Below are positions 32,704-56,939 of a stretch of DNA of 64,000 nucleotides, in pieces. Numbering within the stretch: the first letter of the stretch is position 1; every line of letters begins with the position of its first letter. This stretch comes from Tetradesmus obliquus (taxonomy: Eukaryota; Chlorophyta; Chlorophyceae; Sphaeropleales; Scenedesmaceae). The stretch is taken from assembly GCA_030272155.1 (NCBI GenBank), contig CP126191.1:4486501-4550500 (forward strand). Direction: 5' to 3'. The position numbers and the translations under genes were made by a program. The notes beneath the pieces were generated by a model. The model was given only the letters and a program-made list of their open reading frames with translations, did no database searches and was not told the DNA's origin.

Positions 32704-32802
32704 GTGGGGTGAGTGCGGAACAGGTTGCCTCACTCTCTCAATGGATCTTTTTGTGGAGCAAGTGCACAGTTATGTAGGTCAGCCCTTGTAACTTTCTTGC
32801 TT

Positions 32803-32837
<35 letters not shown>
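32704..32837 (+). mobile_element. Plus-strand LINE end making a fold-back
   Basis: A 134 bp copy (gtggggtgag...cttgcttc plus about 34 A's) inserted in a minus-strand copy of the same sequence, with a 14 bp duplication acaagggctgacct (32,690-32,703 and 32,838-32,851). About 85 bp of the insert is the inverted complement of the sequence just right of it, so the DNA or a transcript could fold into a long hairpin with an A-rich loop. L3 and L5 show the empty site. Confidence 0.92.
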
Positions 32838-32839
<2 letters not shown>

Positions 32840-33442: not shown

Positions 33443-33481
<39 letters not shown>

Positions 33482-33519
<38 letters not shown>

Positions 33520-35017: not shown

Positions 35018-35291
35018 AAAAAAATCAAAAAAAAAACTGCCATCATAGCTGCATCGCTAAACCGCTGGCTGTCACTGCTGCTGCTGCTGCGATTGCCAGG
35101 CGCCTCGCTACTGTGCTGCATTTGCTGGAAAGACCGTTTCTGAGCTGCCTCCATCTCCTGCAAGCCGTCCTGTGGCGCCTCAGCACCCAGGCGGTTGCGC
35201 CACAGCCGCGGGCGCATGCCTACACCTGACACCCACCCCTCTTTGCACTGCCGGCTGCATTGCTCCTGCAGCAGCCTGCATGTTGCCACCC

Positions 35292-37829
35292 GAATTTATC
35301 AAATTTGAAGCCGTTTCAATGTCCTGGCTGCGGGATCAGGGTTGGCAAGGGTGTCGGTGCACCGCCACTAGAAACTCACTGGTCGGCTAAAATTCCTACT
35401 GGACGGTTTTGTCCCGTACGTTGCATCAACAAACAGATGAGGCCCTCACCTGCCTAGGACCGACATGCGAAAGGAAGCGCAGCGGCCTTTGCAGCGTCGC
35501 TACGGTCGAATTTTCCGGCCGGCACGCCTAGTGGCCCATTTTGGAAAGGTGCTGGGTGTGCATCGTGAAAGTTAATTTATTGTGTTATCTGTTTGTAATA
35601 TGTTGATTTTTTTTATTATTATTTTTTTTTTTGAAGCAAGAAAGTTACAAGGGCTGACCTACATAACTTTGCACTTGCTCCACAAAAAGATCCATTGAGA
35701 GAGTGAGGCAACCTGTTCCGCACTCACCCCACAGGTCTCTTGTACCAAGAGACGCTGTCACACGATCATGCAGACAGCCCCGTGCGGGGCAGCCCCGAAA
35801 GGCATCCAGGACCTGACCGAGTGCCCAGACTCCACTAAAATCACAGTCACGCAATGACGTCCTGTGATGTGTGACAGACCGTGACTGGCCCTTGAAACAA
35901 AAGCTGTCCATAGTGTAGCTGTCAGCTATCCATGCATGGTGACTTGCACACCTCTAAAAGCTGCACCTTACAGGCAGCATTACGACACACACACAAGACG
36001 CCTATTTATAGGTGACTGATTGTTAATATGTTGATTTATCAAATTTGAAGCCGTTTCAATGTCCTGGCTGCGGGATCAGGGTTGGCAAGGGTGTCGGTGC
36101 ACCGCCACTATTTTTTTTATTTTATTTTATTTTATTTTTTGAAGCAAATAATGCACCGCCACTAGAAACTCACTGGTCGGCTAAAATTCCTACTGGACGG
36201 TTTTGTCCCGTACGTTGCATCAACAAACATATGAGGCCCTCACCTGCCTAGGACCGACATGCGAAAGGAAGCGCAGCGGCCTTTGCAGCGTCGCTACGGT
36301 CGAATTTTCCGGCCGGCACGCCTAGTGGCCCATTTTGGAAAGGTGCTGGGTGTGCATCGTGAAAGTTAATTTATTGTTTTATCTGTTTGTAATATGTTGA
36401 TTTATCAAATTTGAAGCCGTTTCAATGTCCTGGCTGCGGGATCAGGGTTGGCAAGGGTGTCGGTGCACCGCCACTATTTTTTTTATTTTATTTTATTTTA
36501 TTTTTGAAGCAAATAATGCACCGCCACTAGAAACTCACTGGTCGGCTAAAATTCCTACTGGACGGTTTTGTCCCGTACGTTGCATCAACAAACATATGAG
36601 GCCCTCACCTGCCTAGGACCGACATGCGAAAGGAAGCGCAGCGGCCTTTGCAGCGTCGCTACGGTCGAATTTTCCGGCCGGCACGCCTAGTGGCCCATTT
36701 TGGAAAGGTGCTGGGTGTGCATCGTGAAAGTTAATTTATTGTTTTATCTGTTTGTGATATGTCGATTTATCAAATTTGAAGCCGTTTCAATGTCCTGGCT
36801 GCGGGATCAGGGTTGGCAAGGGTGTCGGTGCACCGCCACTAGAAACTCACTGGTCGGCTAAAATTCCTGCTGGACGGTTTTGTCCCGTACGTTGCATCAA
36901 CAAACATATGAGGCCCTCACCTGCCTAGGACCGACATGCGAAAGGAAGCGCAGCGGCCTTTGCAGCGTCGCTACGGTCGAATTTTCCGGCCGGCACGCCT
37001 AGTGGCCCATTTTGGAAAGGTGCTGGGTGTGCATCGTGAAAGTTAATTTATTGTGTTATCTGTTTGTAATATGTTGATTTATCAAATTTGAAGCCGTTTC
37101 AATGTCCTGGCTGCGAGATCAGGGTTGGCAAGGGTGTCGGTGCACCGCCACTAGAAACTCACTGGTCGGCTAAAATTCCTACTGGACGGTTTTGTCCCGT
37201 ACGTTGCATCAACAAACATATGAGGCCCTCACCTGCCTAGGACCGACATGCGAAAGGAAGCGCAGCGGCCTTTGCAGCGTCGCTACGGTCGAATTTTCCG
37301 GCCGGCACGCCTAGTGGCCCATTTTGGAAAGGTGCTGGGTGTGCATCGTGAAAGCTAATTTATTGTGTTATCTGTTTGTAATATGTTGATTTATCAAATT
37401 TGAAGCCGTTTCAATGTCCTGGCTGCGGGATCAGGGTTGGCAAGGGTGTCGGTGCACCGCCACTATTTTTTTTATTTTATTTTATTTTTTTTTGAAGCAA
37501 ATAATGCACCGCCACTAGAAACTCACTGGTCGGCTAAAATTCCTACTGGACGGTTTTGTCCCGTACGTTGCATCAACAAACATATGAGGCCCTCACCTGC
37601 CTAGGACCGACATGCGAAAGGAAGCGCAGCGGCCTTTGCAGCGTCGCTACGGTCGAATTTTCCGGCCGGCACGCCTAGTGGCCCATTTTGGAAAGGTGCT
37701 GGGTGTGCATCGTGAAAGTTAATTTATTGTTTTATCTGTTTGTAATATGTCGATTTATCAAATTTGAAGCCGTTTCAATGTCCTGGCTGCGGGATCAGGG
37801 TTGGCAAGGGTGTCGGTGCACCGCCACTA
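35292..37829. repeat. 312-bp satellite array, block 3
   Basis: Eight or so monomers, one split by a B insert. It includes monomers with private changes (tttgtgatatgtcg at 36,755; cctgctggacgg at 36,868; ctgcgagatcagg at 37,114) that recur at an offset of about 11,843 bp in block 5 and nowhere else. These private changes support the segmental duplication. Confidence 0.95.
35610..36023 (-). mobile_element. B insert, copy 14
   Basis: Same junctions; the T tract has ttattattatt, homologous to copies 7 and 16. Confidence 0.88.
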
Positions 37830-38486
37830 TTTTTTTTATTTTTTTTTTTTTATTTTTTTTTTTTTTTGAAGCAAGAAAGTTACAAGGGCTGACCTACATA
37901 ACTGTGCACTTGCTCCACAAAAAGATCCATTGAGAGAGTGAGGCAACCTGTTCCGCACTCACCCCACAGGTCTCTTGTACCAAGAGACGCTGTCACACGA
38001 TCATGCAGACAGCCCCGTGCGGGGCAGCCCCGAAAGGCATCCAGGACCTGACCGAGTGCCCAGACTCCCCTAAAATCACAGTTACGCAATGACGTCCTGT
38101 GATGTATGACAGACCGTGACTGGCCCTTGAGACAAAAGCTGTCCATAGTGTAGCTGTCAGCTATCAATGCATGGTGACTTGCACACCTCTGAAAGCTGCA
38201 CCTCACAGGCAGCATTACGATACACACACACAAGACGCCTATTTATAGGTGACTGATTGTCGACACAGACAATCACCACCTGTCTATTAAGTCAACAAGT
38301 TTGATCTCAGGCGACCTTCCTTGCAGCCATGCAAACGGTATCCCACAACCCAACCTAACATCTACTTCCACCCTATCCCATTCCCTCTGAATTTGCTGCC
38401 GTAGCTCTGCCAGAAACCTGCACGCCACAGCCTTAGCAACGTATGATGAGCTGCCCGGCTCGCCAGCTGCAAACCGTTGGCTGCCC

Positions 38487-38529
<43 letters not shown>

Positions 38530-39541
38530 TGTTGTCCTCCGCACCGCTGTTGCTGTGGCTCTGCGATTGCAAACTGTTGCCTGCATTGCGGCTGCTGCCG
38601 CCATCGCTACCACCCGCACTGGCCACAGTCACGCCAGCCCTGCTGCTGCTGCAGCGCACCACCCAAATGGATTCCAACAGCAGCAGACGCAGCTGCGTCC
38701 ACAACTGCTGCTGCCCTGCTGGCGGCGCCCACACACTGAAGTCATCCAGCAGCAGCAGACGGCTGTTATTAACAGGGACCACTGCTCCTGGCTGCACAAG
38801 CTGCCACACCTGTTGCGCATACCACTGCCACACTGCTGCAGCTGTTGGGCACTCCACAAACAAGTGGGTGAGGGTCTCCAGTTGCTGCGGCTGCTGACAC
38901 TGCTGTGCTGGGCATGCAAAGTGAGCCGGCGCGCGCCTGCTGGATGCCAGCATGCGCCGTGCGCCTACCTTCACTCCTGCATGCAGAAGCCGCCAGCCAA
39001 ACACTCGCAGCCGCCTCGGCAGCTGGGTGTCTTTCAGCCTCTGATAACTCGCCACCCAGCGGTGCTGCCTGGCATTGGCAGCACCCATGGATTGAGTGAT
39101 CGGGTCCAGTAGATCATTGTGTGCTGGGCAGCTGATGCACTGCTGTTGCTGCTCCTGTTGCTGCCGCTGAGCCGTGACCACTGCTGCTGCTGTTGCTGCG
39201 CGCTGTCTTGGCAGCTCCCGCTCCCTGGACGGATCCATCCAGGACGCATGGTAAGCTGCCATCATCAAAAAAAAATCAAAAAAAAACTGCCATCATAGCT
39301 GCATCGCTAAACCGCTGGCTGTCACTGCTGCTGCTGCTGCGATTGCCAGGCGCCTCGCTACTGTGCTGCATTTGCTGGAAAGACCGTTTCTGAGCTGCCT
39401 CCATCTCCTGCAAGCCGTCCTGTGGCGCCTCAGCACCCAGGCGGTTGCGCCACAGCCGCGGGCGCATGCCTACACCTGACACCCACCCCTCTTTGCACTG
39501 CCGGCTGCATTGCTCCTGCAGCAGCCTGCATGTTGCCACCC
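37830..39541 (-). mobile_element. LINE block L3 (type II, uninterrupted CTG run)
   Basis: The simplest of the five blocks: poly(T), LINE 3' end, the type II 3' UTR deletion, then the open frame up to the common right end. It shows the empty sites for the fold-back, type I and 80 bp insertions found in L2 and L4, and so gives the ancestral arrangement. Confidence 0.9.
38273..39268 (-). pseudogene. LINE zf-RVT C-terminal frame, L3 copy
   Basis: 331 codons on the minus strand: N-terminal Gln/Ala-rich stretch, zf-RVT-like region at residues about 85-155, a Ser run encoded by the CAG repeat (about residues 248-260), then a C-terminal part with LAELRQQIQREWDRVEVDV and FAWLQGRSPEIKLVD. The frame ends at VDLIDRW in the fused 3' UTR, where the fuller L1 copy continues VDFWQKWGALYRVG. 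Reverse transcriptase and endonuclease are missing. The enzyme context is inferred from the zf-RVT pattern alone. Confidence 0.75.
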
Positions 39542-39931
39542 GAATTTATCAAATTTGAAGCCGTTTCAATGTCCTGGCTGCGGGATCAGGGTTGGCAAGG
39601 GTGTCGGTGCACCGCCACTAGAAACTCACTGGTCGGCTAAAATTCCTACTGGACGGTTTTGTCCCGTACGTTGCATCAACAAACAGATGAGGCCCTCACC
39701 TGCCTAGGACCGACATGCGAAAGGAAGCGCAGCGGCCTTCGCAGCGTCGCTACGGTCGAATTCTCGGGCCGGCACGCCTAGTGGCCCATTTTGGAAAGGT
39801 GCTGGGTGTGCATCGTGAAAGTTAGTTTATTGTTTTATCTCTTTGTAATATGTTAACTAATCAAATTTGAAGCCGTTCCAATGTCCTGGCTGCAGGATGA
39901 GGGTTGGCAAGGGTGACGCTGGGCATGTCCA
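39542..39931. repeat. Decayed end monomer (unit 1)
   Basis: One normal monomer, then one with many changes (ttctcgggccgg, agttagttta, atgttaactaatc, gttccaatgtc). It breaks off at ggcaagggtgacg. The same sequence ends unit 2 at 51,388-51,777. Divergence at an array edge, away from exchange, is the usual pattern for satellites. Confidence 0.85.
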
Positions 39932-39999
39932 CCACCTGACCAAGTGGCAAGAATCGACTATAATCACAGCCATTCGACGAACAACTGTGATGTGTACGT
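39932..39999 (-). mobile_element. Old LINE relic (unit 1 copy)
   Basis: acctgaccaagtgg and cagccattcgacg...ctgtgatgtgtac align along their length with the LINE 3' region (acctgaccgagtgc; cagtcacgcaatgacg...ctgtgatgtgtgac), with roughly one base in four changed by eye. It is much older than the other copies and has no visible tail. Confidence 0.6.
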
Positions 40000-40114
40000 T
40001 GAAACTATCCCTAAACACCAAACATGTGCATGGTCCAGAACCAAACAATGCTTTTTCTTGATCTTGTGGTCATGCATGGCAGTCAGTGCTAGCGTCCGTT
40101 GACCTGCTGCCAAA
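40000..40114 (-). pseudogene. Duplicated 3' flank of the NAD kinase gene
   Basis: Identical to 51,846-51,960. On the minus strand it carries the codons for the original kinase C-terminus (..QVNGR, stop at 40,089-40,091) and downstream flank, with no gene body beside it. It was carried here by the 11.85 kb duplication. Confidence 0.75.
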
Positions 40115-40530
40115 TTTTTTTTTTTTTTTTTTTTTTTTTGAAGCAAGAAAGTTACAAGGGCTGACCTACATAACTGTGCACTTGCTCCACAAAAAGATCC
40201 ATTGAGAGAGTGAGGCAACCTGTTCCGCACTCACCCCACAGGTCTCTTGTACCAAGAGACGCTGTCACACGATCATGCAGACAGCCCCGTGCGGGGCAGC
40301 CCCGAAAGGCATCCAGGACCTGACCGAGTGCCCAGACTCCACTAAAATCACAGTCACGCAATGACGTCCTGTGATGTGTGACAGACCGTGACTGGCCCTT
40401 GAAACAAAAGCTGTCCATAGTGTAGCTGTCAGCTATCCATGCATGGTGACTTGCACACCTCTAAAAGCTGCACCTTACAGGCAGCATTACGACACACACA
40501 CAAGACGCCTATTTATAGGTGACTGATTGT
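40115..40530 (-). mobile_element. Hybrid LINE 3' end at the duplication junction
   Basis: The left side matches the LINE inserted at the end of NAD kinase (flank ctgctgccaaa, then T's, then aactgtgcac). The right side matches a B insert (ctatccatgc and the truncation at gattgttaatatg). The switch lies between about 40,170 and 40,375, within sequence common to both. This is the expected product of unequal crossing-over between two LINE copies in direct orientation. Confidence 0.85.
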
Positions 40531-43500
40531 TAATATGTTGATTTATCAAATTTGAAGCCGTTTCAATGTCCTGGCTGCGGGATCAGGGTTGGCAAGGGTG
40601 TCGGTGCACCGCCACTATTTTTTTTATTTTATTTTATTTTATTTTTTGAAGCAAATAATGCACCGCCACTAGAAACTCACTGGTCGGCTAAAATTCCTAC
40701 TGGACGGTTTTGTCCCGTACGTTGCATCAACAAACATATGAGGCCCTCACCTGCCTAGGACCGACATGCGAAAGGAAGCGCAGCGGCCTTTGCAGCGTCG
40801 CTACGGTCGAATTTTCCGGCCGGCACGCCTAGTGGCCCATTTTAAAAAGGTGCTGGGTGTGCATCGTGAAAGTTAATTTATTGTTTTATCTGTTTGTAAT
40901 ATGTTGATTTATCAAATTTGAAGCCGTTTCAATGTCCTGGCTGCGGGATCAGGGTTGGCAAGGGTGTCGGTGCACCGCCACTAGAAACTCACTGGTCGGC
41001 TAAAATTCCTACTGGACGGTTTTGTCCCGTACGTTGCATCAACAAACATATGAGGCCCTCACCTGCCTAGGACCGACATGCGAAAGGAAGCGCAGCGGCC
41101 TTTGCAGCGTCGCTACGGTCGAATTTTCCGGCCGGCACGCCTAGTGGCCCATTTTGGAAAGGTGCTGGGTGTGCATCGTGAAAGTTAATTTATTGTGTTA
41201 TCTGTTTGTAATATGTTGATTTATCAAATTTGAAGCCGTTTCAATGTCCTGGCTGCGGGATCAGGGTTGGCAAGGGTGTCGGTGCACCGCCACTATTTTT
41301 TTTTATTTTTTTATTTTTTTTTTGAAGCAAATAATGCACCGCCACTAGAAACTCACTGGTCGGCTAAAATTCCTACTGGACGGTTTTGTCCCGTACGTTG
41401 CATCAACAAACATATGAGGCCCTCACCTGCCTAGGACCGACATGCGAAAGGAAGCGCAGCGGCCTTTGCAGCGTCGCTACGGTCGAATTTTCCGGCCGGC
41501 ACGCCTAGTGGCCCATTTTGGAAAGGTGCTGGGTGTGCATCGTGAAAGTTAATTTATTGTGTTATCTGTTTGTAATATGTTGATTTTTTTTTATTTTTTT
41601 TTTTTTTTGAAGCAAGAAAGTTACAAGGGCTGACCTACATAACTTTGCACTTGCTCCACAAAAAGATCCATTGAGAGAGTGAGGCAACCTGTTCCGCACT
41701 CACCCCACAGGTCTCTTGTACCAAGAGACGCTGTCACACGATCATGCAGACAGCCCCGTGCGGGGCAGCCCCGAAAGGCATCCAGGACCTGACCGAGTGC
41801 CCAGACTCCACTAAAATCACAGTCACGCAATGACGTCCTGTGATGTGTGACAGACCGTGACTGGCCCTTGAAACAAAAGCTGTCCATAGTGTAGCTGTCA
41901 GCTATCCATGCATGGTGACTTGCACACCTCTAAAAGCTGCACCTTACAGGCAGCATTACGACACACACACAAGACGCCTATTTATAGGTGACTGATTGTT
42001 AATATGTTGATTTATCAAATTTGAAGCCGTTTCAATGTCCTGGCTGCGGGATCAGGGTTGGCAAGGGTGTCGGTGCACCGCCACTATTTTTTTTATTTTA
42101 TTTTATTTTATTTTTTGAAGCAAATAATGCACCGCCACTAGAAACTCACTGGTCGGCTAAAATTCCTACTGGACGGTTTTGTCCCGTACGTTGCATCAAC
42201 AAACATATGAGGCCCTCACCTGCCTAGGACCGACATGCGAAAGGAAGCGCAGCGGCCTTTGCAGCGTCGCTACGGTCGAATTTTCCGGCCGGCACGCCTA
42301 GTGGCCCATTTTAAAAAGGTGCTGGGTGTGCATCGTGAAAGTTAATTTATTGTTTTATCTGTTTGTAATATGTTGATTTATCAAATTTGAAGCCGTTTCA
42401 ATGTCCTGGCTGCGGGATCAGGGTTGGCAAGGGTGTCGGTGCACCGCCACTAGAAACTCACTGGTCGGCTAAAATTCCTACTGGACGGTTTTGTCCCGTA
42501 CGTTGCATCAACAAACATATGAGGCCCTCACCTGCCTAGGACCGACATGCGAAAGGAAGCGCAGCGGCCTTTGCAGCGTCGCTACGGTCGAATTTTCCGG
42601 CCGGCACGCCTAGTGGCCCATTTTGGAAAGGTGCTGGGTGTGCATCGTGAAAGTTAATTTATTGTGTTATCTGTTTGTAATATGTTGATTTATCAAATTT
42701 GAAGCCGTTTCAATGTCCTGGCTGCGGGATCAGGGTTGGCAAGGGTGTCGGTGCACCGCCACTATTTTTTTTATTTTATTTTATTTTATTTTTGAAGCAA
42801 ATAATGCACCGCCACTAGAAACTCACTGGTCGGCTAAAATTCCTACTGGACGGTTTTGTCCCGTACGTTGCATCAACAAACATATGAGGCCCTCACCTGC
42901 CTAGGACCGACATGCGAAAGGAAGGGCAGCGGCCTTTGCAGCGTCGCTACGGTCGAATTTTCCGGCCGGCACGCCTAGTGGCCCATTTTGGAAAGGTGCT
43001 GGGTGTGCATCGTGAAAGTTAATTTATTGTGTTATCTGTTTGTAATATGTTGATTTATCAAATTTGAAGCCGTTTCAATGTCCTGGCTGCGGGATCAGGG
43101 TTGGCAAGGGTGTCGGTGCACCGCCACTAGAAACTCACTGGTCGGCTAAAATTCCTACTGGACGGTTTTGTCCCGTACGTTGCATCAACAAACATATGAG
43201 GCCCTCACCTGCCTAGGACCGACATGCGAAAGGAAGCGCAGCGGCCTTTGCAGCGTCGCTACGGTCGAATTTTCCGGCCGGCACGCCTAGTGGCCCATTT
43301 TGGAAAGGTGCTGGGTGTGCATCGTGAAAGTTAATTTATTGTGTTATCTGTTTGTAATATGTTGATTTATCAAATTTGAAGCCGTTTCAATGTCCTGGCT
43401 GCGGGATCAGGGTTGGCAAGGGTGTCGGTGCACCGCCACTATTTTTTTTATTTTATTTTATTTTATTTTTGAAGCAAATAATGCACCGCCACTAGAAACT

Positions 43501-44481
43501 CACTGGTCGGCTAAAATTCCTACTGGACGGTTTTGTCCCGTACGTTGCATCAACAAACATATGAGGCCCTCACCTGCCTAGGACCGACATGCGAAAGGAA
43601 GGGCAGCGGCCTTTGCAGCGTCGCTACGGTCGAATTTTCCGGCCGGCACGCCTAGTGGCCCATTTTGGAAAGGTGCTGGGTGTGCATCGTGAAAGTTAAT
43701 TTATTGTGTTATCTGTTTGTAATATGTTGATTTATCAAATTTGAAGCCGTTTCAATGTCCTGGCTGCGGGATCAGGGTTGGCAAGGGTGTCGGTGCACCG
43801 CCACTAGAAACTCACTGGTCGGCTAAAATTCCTACTGGACGGTTTTGTCCCGTACGTTGCATCAACAAACATATGAGGCCCTCACCTGCCTAGGACCGAC
43901 ATGCGAAAGGAAGCGCAGCGGCCTTTGCAGCGTCGCTACGGTCGAATTTTCCGGCCGGCACGCCTAGTGGCCCATTTTGGAAAGGTGCTGGGTGTGCATC
44001 GTGAAAGCTAATTTATTGTGTTATCTGTTTGTAATATGTTGATTTATCAAATTTGAAGCCGTTTCAATGTCCTGGCTGCGGGATCAGGGTTGGCAAGGGT
44101 GTCGGTGCACCGCCACTATTTTTTTTATTTTATTTTATTTTTTTTTGAAGCAAATAATGCACCGCCACTAGAAACTCACTGGTCGGCTAAAATTCCTACT
44201 GGACGGTTTTGTCCCGTACGTTGCATCAACAAACATATGAGGCCCTCACCTGCCTAGGACCGACATGCGAAAGGAAGCGCAGCGGCCTTTGCAGCGTCGC
44301 TACGGTCGAATTTTCCGGCCGGCACGCCTAGTGGCCCATTTTGGAAAGGTGCTGGGTGTGCATCGTGAAAGTTAATTTATTGTTTTATCTGTTTGTAATA
44401 TGTCGATTTATCAAATTTGAAGCCGTTTCAATGTCCTGGCTGCGGGATCAGGGTTGGCAAGGGTGTCGGTGCACCGCCACT
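40531..44481. repeat. 312-bp satellite array, block 4
   Basis: Copies the arrangement of 29.36-32.64 kb. A 677 bp unit (one micro-insert monomer with ggaagggcagc plus one plain monomer) at 42.67-43.34 kb is immediately repeated at 43.35-44.02 kb, whereas unit 1 has it once. Confidence 0.96.
41586..41999 (-). mobile_element. B insert, copy 15
   Basis: Same junctions; homologous to copy 13 at an offset of 11,168 bp. Confidence 0.88.
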
Positions 44482-44647
44482 ATTTTTTTTATTTTTATTT
44501 TTATTTTTTTTTTTTTTTTTGAAGCAAGAAAGTTACAAGGGCTGACCTGTGGGGTGAGTGCGGAACAGGTTGCCTCACTCTCTCAATGGATCTTTTTGTG
44601 GAGCAAGTGCACAGTTATGTAGGTCAGCCCTTGTAACTTTCTTGCTT

Positions 44648-44684
<37 letters not shown>

Positions 44685-45287
44685 AAGGGCTGACCTACAT
44701 AACTGTGCACTTGCTCCACAAAAAGATCCATTGAGAGAGTGAGGCAACCTGTTCCGCACTCACCCCACAGGTCTCTTGTACCAAGAGACGCTGTCACACG
44801 ATCATGCAGACAGCCCCGTGCGGGGCAGCCCCGAAAGGCATCCAGGACCTGACCGAGTGCCCAGACTCCCCTAAAATCACAGTTACGCAATGACGTCCTG
44901 TGATGTATGACAGACCGTGACTGGCCCTTGAGACAAAAGCTGTCCATAGTGTAGCTGTCAGCTATCAATGCATGGTGACTTGCACACCTCTGAAAGCTGC
45001 ACCTCACAGGCAGCATTACGATACACACACACAAGACGCCTATTTATAGGTGACTGATTGTCGACACAGACAATCACCACCTGTCTATTAAGTCAACAAG
45101 TTTGATCTCAGGCGACCTTCCTTGCAGCCATGCAAACGGTATCCCACAACCCAACCTAACATCTACTTCCACCCTATCCCATTCCCTCTGAATTTGCTGC
45201 CGTAGCTCTGCCAGAAACCTGCACGCCACAGCCTTAGCAACGTATGATGAGCTGCCCGGCTCGCCAGCTGCAAACCGTTGGCTGCCC

Positions 45288-45365
<78 letters not shown>

Positions 45366-47134
45366 AAGCAAGAAAGTTACAAGGGCTGACCTACATAACT
45401 GTGCACTTGCTCCACAAAAAGATCCATTGAGAGAGTGAGGCAACCTGTTCCGCACTCACCCCACAGGTCTCTTGTACCAAGAGACGCTGTCACACGATCA
45501 TGCAGACAGCCCCGTGCGGGGCAGCCCCGAAAGGCATCCAGGACCTGACCGAGTGCCCAGACTCCACTAAAATCACAGTCACGCAATGACGTCCTGTGAT
45601 GTGTGACAGACCGTGACTGGCCCTTGAAACAAAAGCTGTCCATAGTGTAGCTGTCAGCTATTTTTTTTTTTTTTTTTTTTTTTTTTGAAGCAAGAAAGTT
45701 ACAAGGGCTGACCTACATAACTGTGCACTTGCTCCGCTGTCAGCTGTCAGCTATCAATGCATGGTGACTTGCACACCTCTAAAAGCTGCACCTTACAGGC
45801 AGCATTACGACACACACACAAGACGCCTATTTATAGGTGACTGATTGTCGACACAGACAATCGCCACCTGTCTATTCATAGACTCTCCACTTCATGCAAA
45901 GCACATCCTGCTATTGACCGAACATACCCCTATGAGACATGTGGCAATATGTAAAAAAAATGACACCAACACAGACACACATATACACACACGCAAACTT
46001 ATCAGCACATGCCTGCGCACATAATCATACTCTGCTACCACATAATCATACTCTGCTACAGTCACGCAATGACGTCCTGTGATGTGTGACAGACCGTGAC
46101 TGGCCCTGCTGCTGCTGTTGCTGTTGTCCTCCGCACCGCTGTTGCTGTGGCTCTGCGATTGCAAACTGTTGCCTGCATTGCGGCTGCTGCCGCCATCGCT
46201 ACCACCCGCACTGGCCACAGTCACGCCAGCCCTGCTGCTGCTGCAGCGCACCACCCAAATGGATTCCAACAGCAGCAGACGCAGCTGCGTCCACAACTGC
46301 TGCTGCCCTGCTGGCGGCGCCCACACACTGAAGTCATCCAGCAGCAGCAGACGGCTGTTATTAACAGGGACCACTGCTCCTGGCTGCACAAGCTGCCACA
46401 CCTGTTGCGCATACCACTGCCACACTGCTGCAGCTGTTGGGCACTCCACAAACAAGTGGGTGAGGGTCTCCAGTTGCTGCGGCTGCTGACACTGCTGTGC
46501 TGGGCATGCAAAGTGAGCCGGCGCGCGCCTGCTGGATGCCAGCATGCGCCGTGCGCCTACCTTCACTCCTGCATGCAGAAGCCGCCAGCCAAACACTCGC
46601 AGCCGCCTCGGCAGCTGGGTGTCTTTCAGCCTCTGATAACTCGCCACCCAGCGGTGCTGCCTGGCATTGGCAGCACCCATGGATTGAGTGATCGGGTCCA
46701 GTAGATCATTGTGTGCTGGGCAGCTGATGCACTGCTGTTGCTGCTCCTGTTGCTGCCGCTGAGCCGTGACCACTGCTGCTGCTGTTGCTGCGCGCTGTCT
46801 TGGCAGCTCCCGCTCCCTGGACGGATCCATCCAGGACGCATGGTAAGCTGCCATCATCAAAAAAAAATCAAAAAAAAAACTGCCATCATAGCTGCATCGC
46901 TAAACCGCTGGCTGTCACTGCTGCTGCTGCTGCGATTGCCAGGCGCCTCGCTACTGTGCTGCATTTGCTGGAAAGACCGTTTCTGAGCTGCCTCCATCTC
47001 CTGCAAGCCGTCCTGTGGCGCCTCAGCACCCAGGCGGTTGCGCCACAGCCGCGGGCGCATGCCTACACCTGACACCCACCCCTCTTTGCACTGCCGGCTG
47101 CATTGCTCCTGCAGCAGCCTGCATGTTGCCACCC
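44482..47134 (-). mobile_element. Compound LINE block L4
   Basis: Duplicate of L2 with the same nested insertions: fold-back at 44,549-44,682, type I copy at 45,327-46,106 and 80 bp insert at 45,662-45,741. It differs from L2 mainly in homopolymer lengths; for instance, L2 has an extra C before tgaagcaag at 33,520. Confidence 0.88.
45892..46860 (-). pseudogene. LINE zf-RVT C-terminal frame, L4 copy
   Basis: Same 322-codon frame as the L2 copy with the same non-LINE end. The zf-RVT residues are unchanged. Confidence 0.7.
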
Positions 47135-49671
47135 GAATTTATCAAATTTGAAGCCGTTTCAATGTCCTGGCTGCGGGATCAGGGTTGGCAAGGGTGTCGG
47201 TGCACCGCCACTAGAAACTCACTGGTCGGCTAAAATTCCTACTGGACGGTTTTGTCCCGTACGTTGCATCAACAAACAGATGAGGCCCTCACCTGCCTAG
47301 GACCGACATGCGAAAGGAAGCGCAGCGGCCTTTGCAGCGTCGCTACGGTCGAATTTTCCGGCCGGCACGCCTAGTGGCCCATTTTGGAAAGGTGCTGGGT
47401 GTGCATCGTGAAAGTTAATTTATTGTGTTATCTGTTTGTAATATGTTGATTTTTTTTATTATTTTTTTTTTTTTTGAAGCAAGAAAGTTACAAGGGCTGA
47501 CCTACATAACTTTGCACTTGCTCCACAAAAAGATCCATTGAGAGAGTGAGGCAACCTGTTCCGCACTCACCCCACAGGTCTCTTGTACCAAGAGACGCTG
47601 TCACACGATCATGCAGACAGCCCCGTGCGGGGCAGCCCCGAAAGGCATCCAGGACCTGACCGAGTGCCCAGACTCCACTAAAATCACAGTCACGCAATGA
47701 CGTCCTGTGATGTGTGACAGACCGTGACTGGCCCTTGAAACAAAAGCTGTCCATAGTGTAGCTGTCAGCTATCCATGCATGGTGACTTGCACACCTCTAA
47801 AAGCTGCACCTTACAGGCAGCATTACGACACACACACAAGACGCCTATTTATAGGTGACTGATTGTTAATATGTTGATTTATCAAATTTGAAGCCGTTTC
47901 AATGTCCTGGCTGCGGGATCAGGGTTGGCAAGGGTGTCGGTGCACCGCCACTATTTTTTTTATTTTATTTTATTTTATTTTTTGAAGCAAATAATGCACC
48001 GCCACTAGAAACTCACTGGTCGGCTAAAATTCCTACTGGACGGTTTTGTCCCGTACGTTGCATCAACAAACATATGAGGCCCTCACCTGCCTAGGACCGA
48101 CATGCGAAAGGAAGCGCAGCGGCCTTTGCAGCGTCGCTACGGTCGAATTTTCCGGCCGGCACGCCTAGTGGCCCATTTTGGAAAGGTGCTGGGTGTGCAT
48201 CGTGAAAGTTAATTTATTGTTTTATCTGTTTGTAATATGTTGATTTATCAAATTTGAAGCCGTTTCAATGTCCTGGCTGCGGGATCAGGGTTGGCAAGGG
48301 TGTCGGTGCACCGCCACTATTTTTTTTATTTTATTTTATTTTATTTTTGAAGCAAATAATGCACCGCCACTAGAAACTCACTGGTCGGCTAAAATTCCTA
48401 CTGGACGGTTTTGTCCCGTACGTTGCATCAACAAACATATGAGGCCCTCACCTGCCTAGGACCGACATGCGAAAGGAAGCGCAGCGGCCTTTGCAGCGTC
48501 GCTACGGTCGAATTTTCCGGCCGGCACGCCTAGTGGCCCATTTTGGAAAGGTGCTGGGTGTGCATCGTGAAAGTTAATTTATTGTTTTATCTGTTTGTGA
48601 TATGTCGATTTATCAAATTTGAAGCCGTTTCAATGTCCTGGCTGCGGGATCAGGGTTGGCAAGGGTGTCGGTGCACCGCCACTAGAAACTCACTGGTCGG
48701 CTAAAATTCCTGCTGGACGGTTTTGTCCCGTACGTTGCATCAACAAACATATGAGGCCCTCACCTGCCTAGGACCGACATGCGAAAGGAAGCGCAGCGGC
48801 CTTTGCAGCGTCGCTACGGTCGAATTTTCCGGCCGGCACGCCTAGTGGCCCATTTTGGAAAGGTGCTGGGTGTGCATCGTGAAAGTTAATTTATTGTGTT
48901 ATCTGTTTGTAATATGTTGATTTATCAAATTTGAAGCCGTTTCAATGTCCTGGCTGCGAGATCAGGGTTGGCAAGGGTGTCGGTGCACCGCCACTAGAAA
49001 CTCACTGGTCGGCTAAAATTCCTACTGGACGGTTTTGTCCCGTACGTTGCATCAACAAACATATGAGGCCCTCACCTGCCTAGGACCGACATGCGAAAGG
49101 AAGCGCAGCGGCCTTTGCAGCGTCGCTACGGTCGAATTTTCCGGCCGGCACGCCTAGTGGCCCATTTTGGAAAGGTGCTGGGTGTGCATCGTGAAAGCTA
49201 ATTTATTGTGTTATCTGTTTGTAATATGTTGATTTATCAAATTTGAAGCCGTTTCAATGTCCTGGCTGCGGGATCAGGGTTGGCAAGGGTGTCGGTGCAC
49301 CGCCACTATTTTTTTTATTTTATTTTATTTTTTTTTGAAGCAAATAATGCACCGCCACTAGAAACTCACTGGTCGGCTAAAATTCCTACTGGACGGTTTT
49401 GTCCCGTACGTTGCATCAACAAACATATGAGGCCCTCACCTGCCTAGGACCGACATGCGAAAGGAAGCGCAGCGGCCTTTGCAGCGTCGCTACGGTCGAA
49501 TTTTCCGGCCGGCACGCCTAGTGGCCCATTTTGGAAAGGTGCTGGGTGTGCATCGTGAAAGTTAATTTATTGTTTTATCTGTTTGTAATATGTCGATTTA
49601 TCAAATTTGAAGCCGTTTCAATGTCCTGGCTGCGGGATCAGGGTTGGCAAGGGTGTCGGTGCACCGCCACT
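47135..49671. repeat. 312-bp satellite array, block 5
   Basis: Counterpart of block 3, with the same private monomer changes (48,598; 48,711; 48,957). It includes one B insert. Confidence 0.95.
47453..47866 (-). mobile_element. B insert, copy 16
   Basis: Same junctions; homologous to copy 14 at an offset of 11,843 bp. Confidence 0.88.
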
Positions 49672-50329
49672 ATTTTTTTTATTTTTTTTTTTTTATTTTT
49701 TTTTTTTTTTGAAGCAAGAAAGTTACAAGGGCTGACCTACATAACTGTGCACTTGCTCCACAAAAAGATCCATTGAGAGAGTGAGGCAACCTGTTCCGCA
49801 CTCACCCCACAGGTCTCTTGTACCAAGAGACGCTGTCACACGATCATGCAGACAGCCCCGTGCGGGGCAGCCCCGAAAGGCATCCAGGACCTGACCGAGT
49901 GCCCAGACTCCCCTAAAATCACAGTTACGCAATGACGTCCTGTGATGTATGACAGACCGTGACTGGCCCTTGAGACAAAAGCTGTCCATAGTGTAGCTGT
50001 CAGCTATCAATGCATGGTGACTTGCACACCTCTGAAAGCTGCACCTCACAGGCAGCATTACGATACACACACACAAGACGCCTATTTATAGGTGACTGAT
50101 TGTCGACACAGACAATCACCACCTGTCTATTAAGTCAACAAGTTTGATCTCAGGCGACCTTCCTTGCAGCCATGCAAACGGTATCCCACAACCCAACCTA
50201 ACATCTACTTCCACCCTATCCCATTCCCTCTGAATTTGCTGCCGTAGCTCTGCCAGAAACCTGCACGCCACAGCCTTAGCAACGTATGATGAGCTGCCCG
50301 GCTCGCCAGCTGCAAACCGTTGGCTGCCC

Positions 50330-50375
<46 letters not shown>

Positions 50376-51387
50376 TGTTGTCCTCCGCACCGCTGTTGCT
50401 GTGGCTCTGCGATTGCAAACTGTTGCCTGCATTGCGGCTGCTGCCGCCATCGCTACCACCCGCACTGGCCACAGTCACGCCAGCCCTGCTGCTGCTGCAG
50501 CGCACCACCCAAATGGATTCCAACAGCAGCAGACGCAGCTGCGTCCACAACTGCTGCTGCCCTGCTGGCGGCGCCCACACACTGAAGTCATCCAGCAGCA
50601 GCAGACGGCTGTTATTAACAGGGACCACTGCTCCTGGCTGCACAAGCTGCCACACCTGTTGCGCATACCACTGCCACACTGCTGCAGCTGTTGGGCACTC
50701 CACAAACAAGTGGGTGAGGGTCTCCAGTTGCTGCGGCTGCTGACACTGCTGTGCTGGGCATGCAAAGTGAGCCGGCGCGCGCCTGCTGGATGCCAGCATG
50801 CGCCGTGCGCCTACCTTCACTCCTGCATGCAGAAGCCGCCAGCCAAACACTCGCAGCCGCCTCGGCAGCTGGGTGTCTTTCAGCCTCTGATAACTCGCCA
50901 CCCAGCGGTGCTGCCTGGCATTGGCAGCACCCATGGATTGAGTGATCGGGTCCAGTAGATCATTGTGTGCTGGGCAGCTGATGCACTGCTGTTGCTGCTC
51001 CTGTTGCTGCCGCTGAGCCGTGACCACTGCTGCTGCTGTTGCTGCGCGCTGTCTTGGCAGCTCCCGCTCCCTGGACGGATCCATCCAGGACGCATGGTAA
51101 GCTGCCATCATCAAAAAAAAATCAAAAAAAAACTGCCATCATAGCTGCATCGCTAAACCGCTGGCTGTCACTGCTGCTGCTGCTGCGATTGCCAGGCGCC
51201 TCGCTACTGTGCTGCATTTGCTGGAAAGACCGTTTCTGAGCTGCCTCCATCTCCTGCAAGCCGTCCTGTGGCGCCTCAGCACCCAGGCGGTTGCGCCACA
51301 GCCGCGGGCGCATGCCTACACCTGACACCCACCCCTCTTTGCACTGCCGGCTGCATTGCTCCTGCAGCAGCCTGCATGTTGCCACCC
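49672..51387 (-). mobile_element. LINE block L5 (type II)
   Basis: Duplicate of L3 without nested insertions. Its CTG run is one triplet longer than in L3, adding one Ser to the encoded frame. Confidence 0.9.
50116..51114 (-). pseudogene. LINE zf-RVT C-terminal frame, L5 copy
   Basis: 332 codons, as in L3 apart from the added Ser in the CAG-encoded run. It has the longest LINE-derived frame in the window, but is still only the C-terminal part. Confidence 0.75.
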
Positions 51388-51777
51388 GAATTTATCAAAT
51401 TTGAAGCCGTTTCAATGTCCTGGCTGCGGGATCAGGGTTGGCAAGGGTGTCGGTGCACCGCCACTAGAAACTCACTGGTCGGCTAAAATTCCTACTGGAC
51501 GGTTTTGTCCCGTACGTTGCATCAACAAACAGATGAGGCCCTCACCTGCCTAGGACCGACATGCGAAAGGAAGCGCAGCGGCCTTCGCAGCGTCGCTACG
51601 GTCGAATTCTCGGGCCGGCACGCCTAGTGGCCCATTTTGGAAAGGTGCTGGGTGTGCATCGTGAAAGTTAGTTTATTGTTTTATCTCTTTGTAATATGTT
51701 AACTAATCAAATTTGAAGCCGTTCCAATGTCCTGGCTGCAGGATGAGGGTTGGCAAGGGTGACGCTGGGCATGTCCA
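51388..51777. repeat. Right edge of the satellite array
   Basis: One normal and one strongly changed, incomplete monomer, ending at about 51,765 (ggcaagggtgacg). No monomer sequence is seen to the right. The array therefore ends roughly 160 bp beyond the original stop codon of the NAD kinase gene. Confidence 0.85.
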
Positions 51778-51845
51778 CCACCTGACCAAGTGGCAAGAAT
51801 CGACTATAATCACAGCCATTCGACGAACAACTGTGATGTGTACGT
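51778..51845 (-). mobile_element. Old LINE relic at array edge
   Basis: Same relic as at 39,932-39,999. It aligns with the middle of the B region and is strongly diverged, so elements of this family were landing here long before the recent copies. Confidence 0.6.
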
Positions 51846-51960
51846 TGAAACTATCCCTAAACACCAAACATGTGCATGGTCCAGAACCAAACAATGCTTT
51901 TTCTTGATCTTGTGGTCATGCATGGCAGTCAGTGCTAGCGTCCGTTGACCTGCTGCCAAA

Positions 51961-52212
51961 TTTTTTTTTTTTTTTTTTTTTTTTGAAGCAAGAAAGTTAC
52001 AAGGGCTGACCTACATAACTGTGCACTTGCTCCACAAAAAGATCCATTGAGAGAGTGAGGCAACCTGTTCCGCACTCACCCCACAGGTCTCTTGTACCAA
52101 GAGACGCTGTCACACGATCATGCAGACAGCCCCGTGCGGGGCAGCCCCGAAAGGCATCCAGGACCTGACCGAGTGCCCAGACTCCACTAAAATCACAGTC
52201 ACGCAATGACGT
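51961..52212 (-). mobile_element. LINE 3' end inserted in the last codons of NAD kinase
   Basis: A 252 bp insert: T's, gaagcaag and LINE sequence cut at cacgcaatgacgt. It lies between two copies of cctgctgccaaa (51,949-51,960 and 52,213-52,224), a 12 bp duplication. It is in the same sense as the kinase. It supplies the final residues DVIA, a stop codon (52,199-52,201), a TGTAA signal and a poly(A) tract, replacing the native end VNGR-stop still readable at 51,935-51,948. Confidence 0.92.
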
Positions 52213-55200
52213 CCTGCTGCCAAAATTGGCTGCCCGGCACACCCGGGGCTACGGGTGGCACAGCACTGAATGTGCCGGCAGTGCTGCCAGCAGCCACGTC
52301 ATCGTCAGTGCCACCATGCCCATTGCTGCTGCCTCTTGCAGTGCGCAACAATGTGTGCAGTGATGGGCTGGAGAGGTTGCCTGCAGCTGCTGCCCTGCCA
52401 GGTGCACCGCGGATAGTCTGGTTCCACTTGAGCTTGTGGGTGATGCCCTGGTCACATGAAAACAGCGGCAATACAAACCAGAGTGTGTTGGTCCACCAAT
52501 GCAGGACAGCAGACATGTGCAGGTCGTGCATGTGCAGCAGCACTGTGTGCACAACATGTGTGACATGGCTGCGGCGGTGGAGGCAGCGCATCAGGGCACC
52601 TCCAGCAAAGAGTGGTCACCGACCACAACGAGCTGCGTGGCAGCAGCGTGCGCACCTCGTACCAGTCTCTGTCCAAGCTGCCGATGTTGATCAGCGGCAG
52701 TGGGCACAGCGATGTCTGGAAGTGCACCGAGCCGCCGCGCTCAATGCGCATGGGGTGCTTGCCGTCAAAGGACGCCCTGCGCAACACAGCACCCGCAGGA
52801 CCACTTAGCATATGGCTTTCAACAAAACATGGGGCAGCTTGAGGCACGTGGGGCCTGCAGATGCTAACACGATTGCAGGCGTGTCTTGCAGCTCACTGCG
52901 TGGTGCTGGGCCTCACCGCGCATGTGACCTCGCGTTGCGCGGCAGGCGCACCAGCAGGTCGGCGTTCTCAGGGATGATGAGCGGCCTGAAGGACAGGCTG
53001 TGCGGCGACAGCGGCGTCAGCAGCGTGCACGGCACGCTGGGCGCCACCATGGAGCCGCCTGTAGCCGCAGCAGGCACATGGCGCAATTTTCAGCAGCATG
53101 AGCACAGCTCTAATCATGAGTACTCTGATGCTGAGCGCTGCTGGTTGAGCAGGAACAGGTGCTGGAGATAACGTGTAATTGGGCACAGCACAGTTCCATC
53201 CTCCTTGCGGCGCCCTCGCCCCCTGCTCACCGGCAGACATGGAGTAGGCGGTTGAGCCGCTGGGCGTGGCGATGATCAGCCCGTCAGCCTCGGCAGCTGC
53301 ACACGCGGCAGGACAACACGACACGTTGCAGAAGGGTGTGGGATGTTTGTCGCGTTGCAGCAGTGTTGGCCATAGCCCTCTAGCTACAGACAGTGCCTGA
53401 GGCACCCACACACATTCCACCATCATCAGTCTGCAGCACAGTGCAAGGCCACGTCTTGCAGGCACAGCCAGCTTGCAGGAGGCCGCCGCGCCGCCCCACC
53501 TGTGACGAAGCCGCCGTCGATGTACACCTCCAGGAACACGCTGCTGGGGAAGGCGCCCCTGCAGGGCGCGGCAGCAGGCAAGGGCAGGGCGAGAGCAGGT
53601 GGGTGTGGCGGGACAGCCAACCAAACAGTGCAGCCCAACTTATGAGGGCACATGCACACTCTTCTATGGCAGCAGCGGCATCACCCTGCGGTAGTTCCTC
53701 AGCCTGCGTGCTCCCCACCAGGAGGTGACAGCCCCAATAAGAGCAACGCCGGCAGGCCAGGCCTGGGCGGCTGCATGCCACCGTGTGTGCCCGCCTCACC
53801 TGTCGATGACGCACTCGTTAAGGATGTGGTGCACGCGCAGCAGCTCGCCAGCAGCATTCAGCACAGCGCAGCGCTTGCGCGTGCGCAGCGTGCAGTACAG
53901 GTGCTCACGGTTGGCTGCCAGCACCCACTGCAGGCAGGCCCTGCAGCGCACACCACAGCAACTGATAGCCCTCAGGCATACTCATGCGTGCTACAGGATG
54001 ACCTCAGGAGGCACAGCAGCATGCCCACAACCCTGCAGCTCCACCGACACTGCAAGGCAAGCTACACGCTGCAGCAACACAAGCGTTCTGGAGATGCTGC
54101 AGACTGCAAGTTATGGTTTGAAAAGCTCAACATTCTGATGAGATGTGAAGGCAGGGGTTCCTGCCTCCCTACAGCGCTTCCTCCCAAAGTATTTTTTTTT
54201 TGAAGCAAGAAAGTTACAAGGGCTGACCTACATAACTGTGCACTTGCTCCACAAAAAGATCCATTGAGAGAGCGAGGCAACCTGTTCCGCGCTCACCCCA
54301 CAGGTCTCTTGTACCAAGAGACGCTGTCACACGATCATGCAGACAGCCCCGTGCGGGGCAGCCCCGAAAGGCATCCAGGACCTGACCGAGTGCCCAGACT
54401 CCACTAAAATCACAGTCACGCAATGACGTCCTGTGATGTGTGACAGACCGTGACTGGCCCTTGAAACAAAAGCTGTCCATAGTGTAACTGTCAGCTATCA
54501 ATGCATGGTGACTTGCACACCTCTAAAAGCTGCACCTTACAGGCAGCATTACGACACACACACAAGACGCCTGTTTATAGGTGAGGGATTGTCGGCACAG
54601 ACAATCACCACCTGACTATTCCTAGATATTCCACTTTATGCAAAGCACATCCTGCTATTGACCAAACATACACCAATGGGACATGTGGCATTATGTCATC
54701 AATGCCAACAATACAGACACACACAAACACACACACAGACTTGTCTGCGCCTCCCAAAGTATCCCGTCACCCTGACGCGCCCCCACCCCTAGCCCCAAGC
54801 CCCATCCACCCCCTGCTGCCCACCTGTACTGGGTGGCGTCGAAGGGCGTGAGGAAGCCCAGCGTGCCCATAGCAAAGCACATCACGGGCGGCAGCGGCAC
54901 GTCCCCGGTGAACAGCGATGCCAGGTAGCTGTCAGGCGGCAAGCCGCAGGCAGGCACGGCAGCCACGGTGAGCCATGAAAACAGAAGTCAGGGTCAGAGA
55001 GCATACACAGCAATGGATAAAACAGCTGAGCAGCTGCACGCAGCAGCTGCAAGTCAGTCAAATCAACTGGATGCTTTCTAGAACAAAAAAAAAAAAAGAA
55101 ATGCTGACTTGCAATGTAGCAGAAAGACCTGCTCTCATGCAAGTGCATTCTGCTCCGTAAATTGTATTGCACGCAGTTGCATCACTTGCATCTGCAGGCA

Positions 55201-56939
55201 GCATGCTGTCAAGGACTTCTTTCTGGGAGTCTGACAGCTTGCTGCATCATTGATGAAAGCTGCTGTTTGTCGCTGCTGCTGCCACCCCTGCTGCTGCTGC
55301 CAGTGTTCCCGCTGCTGCTGCTGCTTGCAGATGTCTGCGTGTGGCGCCACTCACAGTACTGTGCCGTCGCCGCCCAGCGTGATGGCAAAGTCGATGTCTG
55401 TTGTTGCCGGGTCAAAGGGCGCAAATTGCGGGAACTCCTGCTGGTGCACAGCACGCTCCACAAACACCTGCCCGCACAGCAGTCACAAGCAGCAGAAGCC
55501 AAGAGAGTGTTGCCGAGGCGACAGGGCACAGCAGTGTGGCCAGGAAACAAGCAAGCAACGCACCTGCCCTGATGACACAGACGCTGCCACAAGTAGCAGC
55601 ACCCCGCAGCTGTACTGCTGCAGCCGACGTCATCCCACTCTTGCACAGCACCATGTCACCTGCGCTTGGAGCTCCAAGGGCAGGTGGAGCCAGATGCACA
55701 GCACTGCTATGAGCCCATTGCGAGCCGCTGCAGCCCTTGACTCAGCCTGCAGCTGCACTGGCTGCCACATGTCACTGAGTCAGCCCTCCCCCAGCACGCC
55801 CACCTGCAGCCCCTGCTGCTGCAGCCAGGTCGCCATCTCCTCCAGCTGCGCCCCTGCTGCTGGCACGGGCTTCTTCACAATCAGCACGCGCCTGGGGCCA
55901 CCCTGCAGGTGCAAGTGCACAGGCACAGGGTGGGGCCAGCCCCAGCAGGCAGCGCAGGTCAGCACAGCGCTACCACCCATTGCTGTGCGCCATCACGCCA
56001 GGAAGCATGTGCCCACTCTTACTGCACAAACAGCTGCATAGCAGAGTCATGGCAGCAAGCTGGCGAAGCTGCGTGCCAGCTATAGCCACAGCTAGCCGCC
56101 CACAGCACAGACACAGGCACGCTGCGCCCTCCCCCCCTGCCCCCTTTATGCCCCACCTGCTCCCAGACCAGCATGGCGCGCCGCCGCAGGCGCAGCGCTG
56201 CGCTGTCGCTGAAGCGCAGCGTGGCGCCGTAGATGAGCCCACGCACGGCATCGTCTGCGCCATAAGCACTGTCCAGCGGAGCAACAGCTATGCTGCTGCC
56301 GCTGCTGCTGCTGCTGCTGCTACTACTGCTCAACACCTGCTGCATCTGCTGGTGCTGATGTTGATCCTGCTGCTGCTGCTGCTGCTGTTGAGGATCTTGC
56401 TGCTGCAGCTGCTGCTGCCCCCGCAAGGTCTGATCCTGCTGCATGCTGGTAGTGCTATCAGGCCCCGCCTCAAGTTCAGGTGGCGATGCTTCTGTGCACT
56501 GCATGGTGTCCGCCAGCCCGCCATTAGACACAGCTGTCGCAGAACTCGGAGGCTGCAGCTGTGGCTGGCACACTGATTGGGGCGGAACTTGCCGCCGTGG
56601 TTGCTTGGCTGCAGGCTGCTGCAGCCCTTTACTGCTGCTGCTGCTGCGGCTCCTGGTTCGTCGTCTGCAAGTGCTAGAGCTGACTCTGGTTGTGCTGCTG
56701 CTGCCGCTGCTGCTGGTGCTCCTGCCAGTGCACTGGCATACTGTGCGTGGAGCGCCCACCAGCCAGTTGCAGCAGTACACATCCGGCCACTGACCTCCAT
56801 GCACTGAGCTACCATAGCCTTGCAGTGCACTAGTAAAAGGCAGCAGACGGGGTCTGTACACTTTTGCAAGCACGTCAGTACAACACCGTGATGTATGCCC
56901 GGCACCTAAGCCACTGCTGCCTGCTAGGGCTCTGTGCAT
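52199..56939 (-). CDS. NAD kinase
   Basis: Phosphorylates NAD+ to NADP+ with ATP. Exons, read on the minus strand: 56,939-56,157; 55,902-55,804; 55,467-55,355; 54,928-54,824; 53,940-53,800; 53,558-53,500; 53,296-53,231; 53,058-52,929; 52,776-52,656; 52,447-52,199. All introns are GT-AG and the reading phase is kept, giving about 621 residues. Family motifs in order: RRVLIVKKP, the catalytic [66 protein letters not shown], and [13 protein letters not shown] at the end of the fold. The first 240 or so residues are Gln/Ser-rich and not recognisable; a plastid or other targeting role is possible but not shown. The start is uncertain: the ATG at 56,939 has a TATATA 49 bp upstream, but the frame stays open to 57,083. 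The C-terminal tail beyond the fold is Gly/Ser-rich and ends in LINE-derived codons. Confidence 0.93.
54193..54749 (-). mobile_element. LINE 3' end in NAD kinase intron 4
   Basis: A 557 bp insert between two copies of cctcccaaagtat (54,180-54,192 and 54,750-54,762), in the sense of the gene. It reaches further into the 3' UTR than the B insert. It differs from array copies at many sites (gagcgaggc, ctgtttataggtgaggg, ccaatgggacatgtgg) and its tail is down to about 10 T's, so it is older. Its TGTAA signal is intact, so it could cause early polyadenylation within the intron. Confidence 0.92.

What the first reader, a model, noticed from the sequence alone, without database searches (positions are those of the whole stretch)
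51949..52224. A LINE insertion rewrote the last codons of NAD kinase and now provides its stop and poly(A) signal
Between the 12 bp duplicates cctgctgccaaa the LINE fragment starts inside the kinase's final codons. The present end is WQQ-DVIA-stop, with D-V-I-A and the stop from the LINE; the displaced native end WQQ-VNGR-stop is still readable next to the array. By chance both tails are four residues long. The insert is in the sense of the gene and brings TGTAA plus a poly(A) tract, so it may also set the transcript's 3' end. The conserved kinase fold ends earlier (THKLKWN), so the enzyme probably still works.
Basis: partly seen in the sequence, partly recalled or inferred. Interest (0 to 1): 0.8.

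Follow-up and report, generated by a model that had tools for sequence, protein, structure and literature searches.

The report
LINE insertion replaced NAD kinase's end
In what is probably a green alga, a young fragment of a jumping gene landed in the last codons of an enzyme gene beside a repeat cluster (probably the centromere), giving it a new stop and a likely new message end, and later seems to have helped copy the gene's old tail into the repeats.

Summary
A 5'-truncated LINE 3' end (228 nt plus poly(A), 51961-52212, sense of the gene) lies between perfect 12-nt duplicates in the last exon of an apparently intact 10-exon NAD kinase gene (minus strand, 56939-52199). It turns WQQ-VNGR-stop into WQQ-DVIA-stop. 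It brings UGUAAC starting 17 nt before the poly(A) tract, where the chlorophyte signal peaks (PMC1868727, passages), and the next TGTAA on that strand is 2.2 kb downstream. It is young: identical to 40 other scored places in the genome. These lie in one cluster per contig on 7 of 17 contigs, as Zepp-type LINEs do at green-algal centromeres. NAD kinase is the gene at the cluster's edge.

(1) The displaced tail exists twice: 11.85 kb away the same flank joins a hybrid LINE, so the insert apparently served as handle for an unequal crossing-over duplicating about 11.2 kb of array. (2) The native 3' flank is itself an old sense LINE relic. (3) Intron 4 holds another sense LINE with 13-nt duplicates and the same signal. 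Use of the new stop and poly(A) site in RNA is inferred. A clean new case of a known kind.

The parts
52199..56939 (-). NAD kinase gene as modelled: 10 exons, 621 aa, stop provided by the LINE insert (N-terminal start not tested)
   Evidence: exons 56939-56157, 55902-55804, 55467-55355, 54928-54824, 53940-53800, 53558-53500, 53296-53231, 53058-52929, 52776-52656, 52447-52199; 9 of 9 introns GT-AG, phases consistent. NAD_kinase_C 2.4e-29, NAD_kinase 1.6e-12; best solved relative 9cr4_A, 8.7e-57.
52213..52224 (.). Target-site duplicate, gene side (cctgctgccaaa)
51949..51960 (.). Target-site duplicate, array side (cctgctgccaaa)
51985..52212 (-). 5'-truncated LINE 3' end (228 nt), sense of the gene; encodes the end of D, then V-I-A and the stop at 52201-52199
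51961..51984 (-). Poly(A) tract of the insert (24 A on the minus strand)
51997..52001 (-). TGTAA poly(A)-signal candidate, first base 17 nt before the poly(A) tract
   Evidence: chlorophyte UGUAA peak around -17: PMC1868727, passages seen
51935..51948 (-). Displaced native end (rest of V, then N-G-R and stop TAG at 51937-51935)
51767..51906 (-). Old, diverged LINE 3'-UTR relic in the native 3' flank, sense of the gene
   Evidence: local score 87 for 51769-51948 against the LINE 3' UTR; 0 of 2000 dinucleotide shuffles reached it (max 63); antisense 27; introns 23-36
39903..40114 (.). Second copy of the native NAD kinase 3' flank (39903-40102) and array-side duplicate (40103-40114), inside the array
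   Evidence: (100% over 200 nt)
40115..40530 (-). Hybrid LINE: poly(A) side and left part as in the NAD kinase insert, right part and right flank as in LINE X
   Evidence: (232 of 232 with the insert; 404 of 405 with X)
28946..29362 (-). LINE X, the inferred crossing-over partner in the array
28946..40371 (.). Copy A of the tandem duplication
   Evidence: 11419 matches, 3 mismatches, one 677-nt indel and 7 further gap columns against 40115-52216
40115..52216 (.). Copy B of the tandem duplication, ending in the NAD kinase insert
54193..54749 (-). Another LINE insertion in NAD kinase intron 4, sense, with its own TGTAA (54218) and poly(A)
   Evidence: (96.3% over 431 nt), (54630-54748 part)
54180..54192 (.). 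13-nt target-site duplicate of the intron LINE (cctcccaaagtat), one side
54750..54762 (.). 13-nt target-site duplicate of the intron LINE, other side

Best explanation
A centromere-type L1 LINE inserted a 5'-truncated copy, by target-primed reverse transcription, into the last codons of the NAD kinase gene that borders its cluster (shown from sequence: poly(A) tail, duplicates, identity with many other copies, 4-nt microhomology at the 5' junction). The exon now runs into the LINE and stops after D-V-I-A (shown at DNA level). The mRNA is probably cleaved at the LINE's own poly(A) site, giving a 3' UTR of about 214 nt (inferred). The enzyme core is untouched, so activity is probably kept (inferred). 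Later the insert paired with a LINE in the array and an unequal crossing-over made an 11.2-kb tandem duplication, carrying a copy of the old gene tail into the array (inferred from the hybrid LINE and switched flanks).
For: Duplicates and poly(A). Insert identical to 40 other scored places. Empty-site reading VNGR, present reading DVIA. Gene intact: 9 of 9 introns GT-AG, both Pfam domains, solved relatives align to residues 543-553 of 621 for those that reach the end. UGUAAC at -17; the four TGTAA on the minus strand in 49000-57200 (54541, 54218, 52001, 49727) all lie in LINE copies. UGUAA rule: PMC1868727, passages. Duplication. Diagnostic base: 16 of 16 array LINEs with the TGTAATATGTTGA flank carry A, the insert and the hybrid carry C. 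LINE identity: RVT_1 1.8e-29 in an ORF followed by the same 3' UTR; solved relatives led by LINE-1 ORF2p-type proteins.
Against: No RNA: neither stop nor poly(A) use is shown. The tail's open frame is uninformative (0.42 by chance) and its codon score only weakly positive (+0.06 against -0.14 in the other frames). The intron-4 LINE carries the same signal in sense, so either that signal is bypassed or the gene already suffers premature ends. The diagnostic base C also occurs in 4 other LINE copies with other flanks (13145, 14280, 33522, 45365), so it is the flank, not the base alone, that ties the hybrid to NAD kinase. The native site has CAG-GT at the junction, so VNGR might have been spliced out. 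No relatives lacking the insert were available.
Confidence: 0.8

Rival explanations
1. The insertion is real, but the last-exon tail is not the main coding end: the transcript is spliced or ends before or around the insert, so the new stop and signal are rarely used.
For: The 69 codons between KWN and the insert would be open by chance 42% of the time. Relatives' folds end at residues 543-553. One paralogue (L010) ends about 10 residues after its HWN. The native junction CAG-GTCAAC looks like a weak donor (seen; motif recalled).
Against: No in-frame stop lies between KWN and the insert, so some use of the tail is forced unless an intron intervenes. Codon score favours the coding frame slightly. 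Another paralogue (L009) also has a long low-complexity tail, about 190 residues, after its RWSN (six-frame reading). The downstream flank is LINE relic and array, with no sign of another exon.
Confidence: 0.15
2. The gene is decaying: LINE insertions in intron 4 and the last exon cut its transcripts, and two other NAD kinase loci carry the function.
For: Three NAD kinase loci in the genome (4 exon matches in 3 loci). Sense LINE with TGTAA and poly(A) in intron 4.
Against: All 10 exons are open, 9 of 9 introns keep GT-AG, motifs GGDGT and NE and TPSGSTAYS are intact (motifs recalled). The insert is identical to other copies, so there has been little time for decay in either case.
Confidence: 0.12
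3. The second copy of the native tail arose otherwise: gene conversion, replication slippage, or an assembly artefact, not reciprocal unequal crossing-over.
For: The region is a repeat array, where assembly errors are common; crossing-over, conversion and break-induced replication leave similar marks in one assembly.
Against: The copies differ by 3 mismatches, a 677-nt unit and homopolymer lengths, not exactly as a duplicated contig would; the junction lies inside shared LINE sequence and both flanks switch as expected.
Confidence: 0.25

Closest known systems
Zepp (Coccomyxa subellipsoidea) and ZeppL-1_cRei (Chlamydomonas) L1 LINEs, clustered at putative centromeres (PMC3446292 and PMC8226300, passages seen)
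   Same: L1-type LINE with mostly 5'-truncated, nested copies; in the scored matches one cluster per contig on 7 of 17 contigs
   Different: Here LINE 3' ends are mixed with 312-nt satellite units, and copies have entered the bordering protein gene; family membership by tree was not tested, and one extra place lies at C5 4.67 Mb
LINE insertions that alter or end host transcripts (e.g. mammalian L1 insertions; papers seen only as listings)
   Same: Sense LINE sequence supplies stop and poly(A) signal
   Different: Chlorophyte UGUAA signal, and the insertion lies in the very last codons, so the protein changes by only about four residues
LINE-LINE nonallelic homologous recombination (PMC4344489, start of abstract seen)
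   Same: Two LINE copies serve as homologous substrates for a structural change
   Different: One partner sits in a gene's coding exon at a satellite border, the other in the array; the product is a duplication of the array plus the old gene tail

Membership tests
LINE retrotransposition product (target-primed reverse transcription) | Target-site duplicates flank the insert | tested here: met
   12/12 nt, 8 nt if the microhomology is left out
LINE retrotransposition product (target-primed reverse transcription) | 3' poly(A) tail and 5' truncation | tested here: met
   24 A on the minus strand; insert begins inside the LINE 3' UTR
L1-type LINE | Reverse transcriptase closest to L1 ORF2p | tested here: met
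   RVT_1 1.8e-29; solved relatives: LINE-1 ORF2p 1.6e-22, R2 4e-9
L1-type LINE | zf-RVT zinc-binding domain at the ORF end | tested here: inconclusive
   E 1.2e-5 to 5.3e-6 but 26.3-27.4 bits, just under the curated 27.5
Zepp/ZeppL centromeric LINE | One cluster per chromosome | tested here: inconclusive
   All 59 matches fall in one stretch per contig on 7 of 17 contigs; (ORF-side piece, 41 matches) shows 9 contigs and a second place on C5; only the best 40 candidates were scored in each
Zepp/ZeppL centromeric LINE | Branches with Zepp in the L1 tree | not tested
   No Zepp sequence was at hand
Zepp/ZeppL centromeric LINE | Binds centromeric histone | not testable with these tools
   Needs CENH3 ChIP
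NAD kinase | N- and C-terminal NAD kinase domains | tested here: met
Chlorophyte poly(A) signal | UGUAA about 10-30 nt before the cleavage site | tested here: met
   First base at -17 of the poly(A) tract (PMC1868727 passages); use in RNA not testable

The most novel reading that the evidence does not exclude
The gene at the edge of this LINE cluster is being drawn into it step by step: an old LINE relic became its 3' flank, a later LINE settled in intron 4, and a young one replaced its last codons and poly(A) site. That last LINE then became a recombination handle through which array growth copied the gene's discarded end into the repeats. Cluster LINEs would thus both end the border gene's transcript and let the array expand right up to it.
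Probability: 0.3. Interest if true: 0.55.

Novelty: new member of a known kind. Interest (0 to 1): 0.4.

Why it matters
It is a dated, readable series of events at a gene/centromere-like border: the empty-site sequence, the new end and the recombination product all survive in one assembly. It makes testable whether cluster-specific LINEs give bordering genes their 3' ends and whether such insertions seed expansion of the array.

Tried and rejected
Chance similarity instead of an insertion: rejected (12/12 duplicates, poly(A), 40 other identical places). 'Allele ended in DVIA before the LINE': made very unlikely by the identity of those codons with the LINE 3' UTR, but no relative could be checked. 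That the insert was copied from the array location to the gene: rejected, since only the gene site has duplicates on both sides and the gene DNA 52213-52640 has one place in the genome. Evidence that the tail is coding from its open length: no use. Searches for a species name and for a paper on this genome gave nothing specific, so the organism is only 'probably a chlorophyte'. Structure prediction was not run: without an alignment a disordered tail would say little.

Literature: no paper describing this locus or a LINE giving a green-algal gene its stop and UGUAA appeared in the listings; these are word searches of an open-access library, so absence is weak evidence.

Full report
What was checked. 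The window is G000:C1:4486501-4550500 of a 104.7-Mb assembly in 17 contigs. Four bases at the gene-side junction are shared by target and LINE, so the duplicate is 8 to 12 nt. Random flank pairs reach 12 nt in 12 of 20,000 draws.

The gene. My model has 10 exons on the minus strand, 56939 to 52199, with 9 of 9 introns GT-AG and consistent phases; the product is 621 aa. The start codon and the low-complexity N-terminus were not tested. Pfam finds NAD_kinase (276-374) and NAD_kinase_C (407-528). Twenty-one distinct solved sequences match; the best (9cr4_A, 8.7e-57) aligns to residue 550, and none of the listed stretches goes beyond 553. The 73 residues after KWN therefore lie outside the conserved fold, and the insertion changes only the last four. 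With the flanks joined the tail reads WQQVNGR-stop; as it stands, WQQDVIA-stop. That the tail is open says little: 42% of 5,000 random sequences of like dinucleotide make-up are open over the same length. A codon score trained on other exons is slightly positive for the coding frame (+0.062 against -0.142 and -0.143). Two further NAD kinase loci exist; one seems to end about 10 residues after HWN, the other to carry a long low-complexity tail, both by six-frame reading only.

Age and source. The 228-nt body is identical to 40 other places, and all 59 matches reported fall in one stretch per contig on C1, C5, C7, C8, C12, C16 and C17 (best of 961 candidates only). A search that caught the ORF side of the LINE gave 41 matches on 9 contigs, with a second place on C5 at 4.67 Mb. 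An 1178-aa ORF followed by the same 3' UTR has a reverse transcriptase domain (1.8e-29) whose solved relatives are led by L1-type proteins. This resembles Zepp and ZeppL clusters at putative centromeres (PMC3446292, PMC8226300; passages only). To the right of the insert, up to 64000 and 8 kb beyond, no 312-nt unit matched, and the only LINE match other than low-complexity CAG-type tracts was the one in intron 4. NAD kinase is thus the gene at the right edge of the cluster.

The poly(A) signal. On the minus strand between 49000 and 57200, TGTAA occurs at 54541, 54218, 52001 and 49727 only, each in a LINE copy. The one in the insert starts 17 nt before the poly(A) tract. In chlorophytes other than Pyramimonas UGUAA peaks sharply around -17, and UGUAAC was in 52.1% of Scenedesmus ends (PMC1868727, passages). 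So the insert brings a textbook site; the next one downstream is 2.2 kb away. AATAAA occurs at 51677, which might have served before. Against a simple reading, intron 4 has the same signal in sense and the gene still looks intact.

The native flank is not plain unique DNA. 51769-51948 aligns in sense with the LINE 3' UTR at score 87; none of 2,000 dinucleotide shuffles reached that (maximum 63), the antisense scored 27, and five intron stretches 23 to 36. The alignment begins about 29 nt after the native stop. An older relative of the same LINE already formed the gene's 3' flank.

The second LINE. Intron 4 holds a sense copy, 54193-54749, between 13-nt duplicates cctcccaaagtat (54180-54192, 54750-54762). 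Over 431 nt it is 96.3% identical to the copy at 49661, and over the part shared with the insert 225 of 227.

The duplication. The native flank has exactly two matches in the genome, here and at window 39903-40102, both 100% over 200 nt. At the second place the flank, one cctgctgccaaa and the poly(A) are followed by a LINE that does not stop at the insert's truncation point but runs on to 40530 and the array. 28946-40371 and 40115-52216 align with 11,419 matches, 3 mismatches, one 677-nt indel and 7 other gap columns. The LINE at 40115-40530 equals the NAD kinase insert over 232 of 232 bases and LINE X (28946-29362) over 404 of 405; at the one differing base it has the insert's letter. All 16 listed LINEs with the usual array flank carry the other letter (8 of 34 copies were left out there as opposite in strand or too different). 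Four copies with other flanks share the insert's letter, so the flank is the stronger evidence. The simplest account is an unequal crossing-over between the insert and LINE X, within about 190 nt of shared LINE, giving a tandem duplication of 11,168 nt plus a unit gained or lost later. Conversion or an assembly fault are not excluded.

Verdict. The type of event is known; the preservation of empty-site tail, new tail and recombination product at a cluster edge is what makes it worth keeping.

Noticed in passing
window 164-49330, many places: 53 places (one pattern match) where a T/A-rich run and GAAGCAAATAATGCACCGCCA interrupt the 312-nt array always after GTGCACCGCCAC; they look like very short LINE-type 3' tails inserted once at one satellite site and then amplified.
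   Followed up: partly
window 43032 region against 31186: Copy B of the duplication has 677 nt (one 312 + 365 unit) that copy A lacks.
   Followed up: partly
window 54193-54749: Sense LINE with its own 13-nt duplicates and TGTAA in NAD kinase intron 4.
   Followed up: partly
window 13705-13746, 34175-34216, 46018-46059: A 21-nt unit CACATAATCATACTCTGCTAC present as two exact copies at three places in the array.
   Followed up: no
L017-group matches, C5 4665712-4667225: LINE ORF-side matches at a second place on C5, 2 Mb from the main cluster.
   Followed up: no
window 58594-59772 and neighbours: Plus-strand gene-like ORFs rich in Q/A next to NAD kinase, divergent from it; no Pfam match for the largest.
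   Followed up: no
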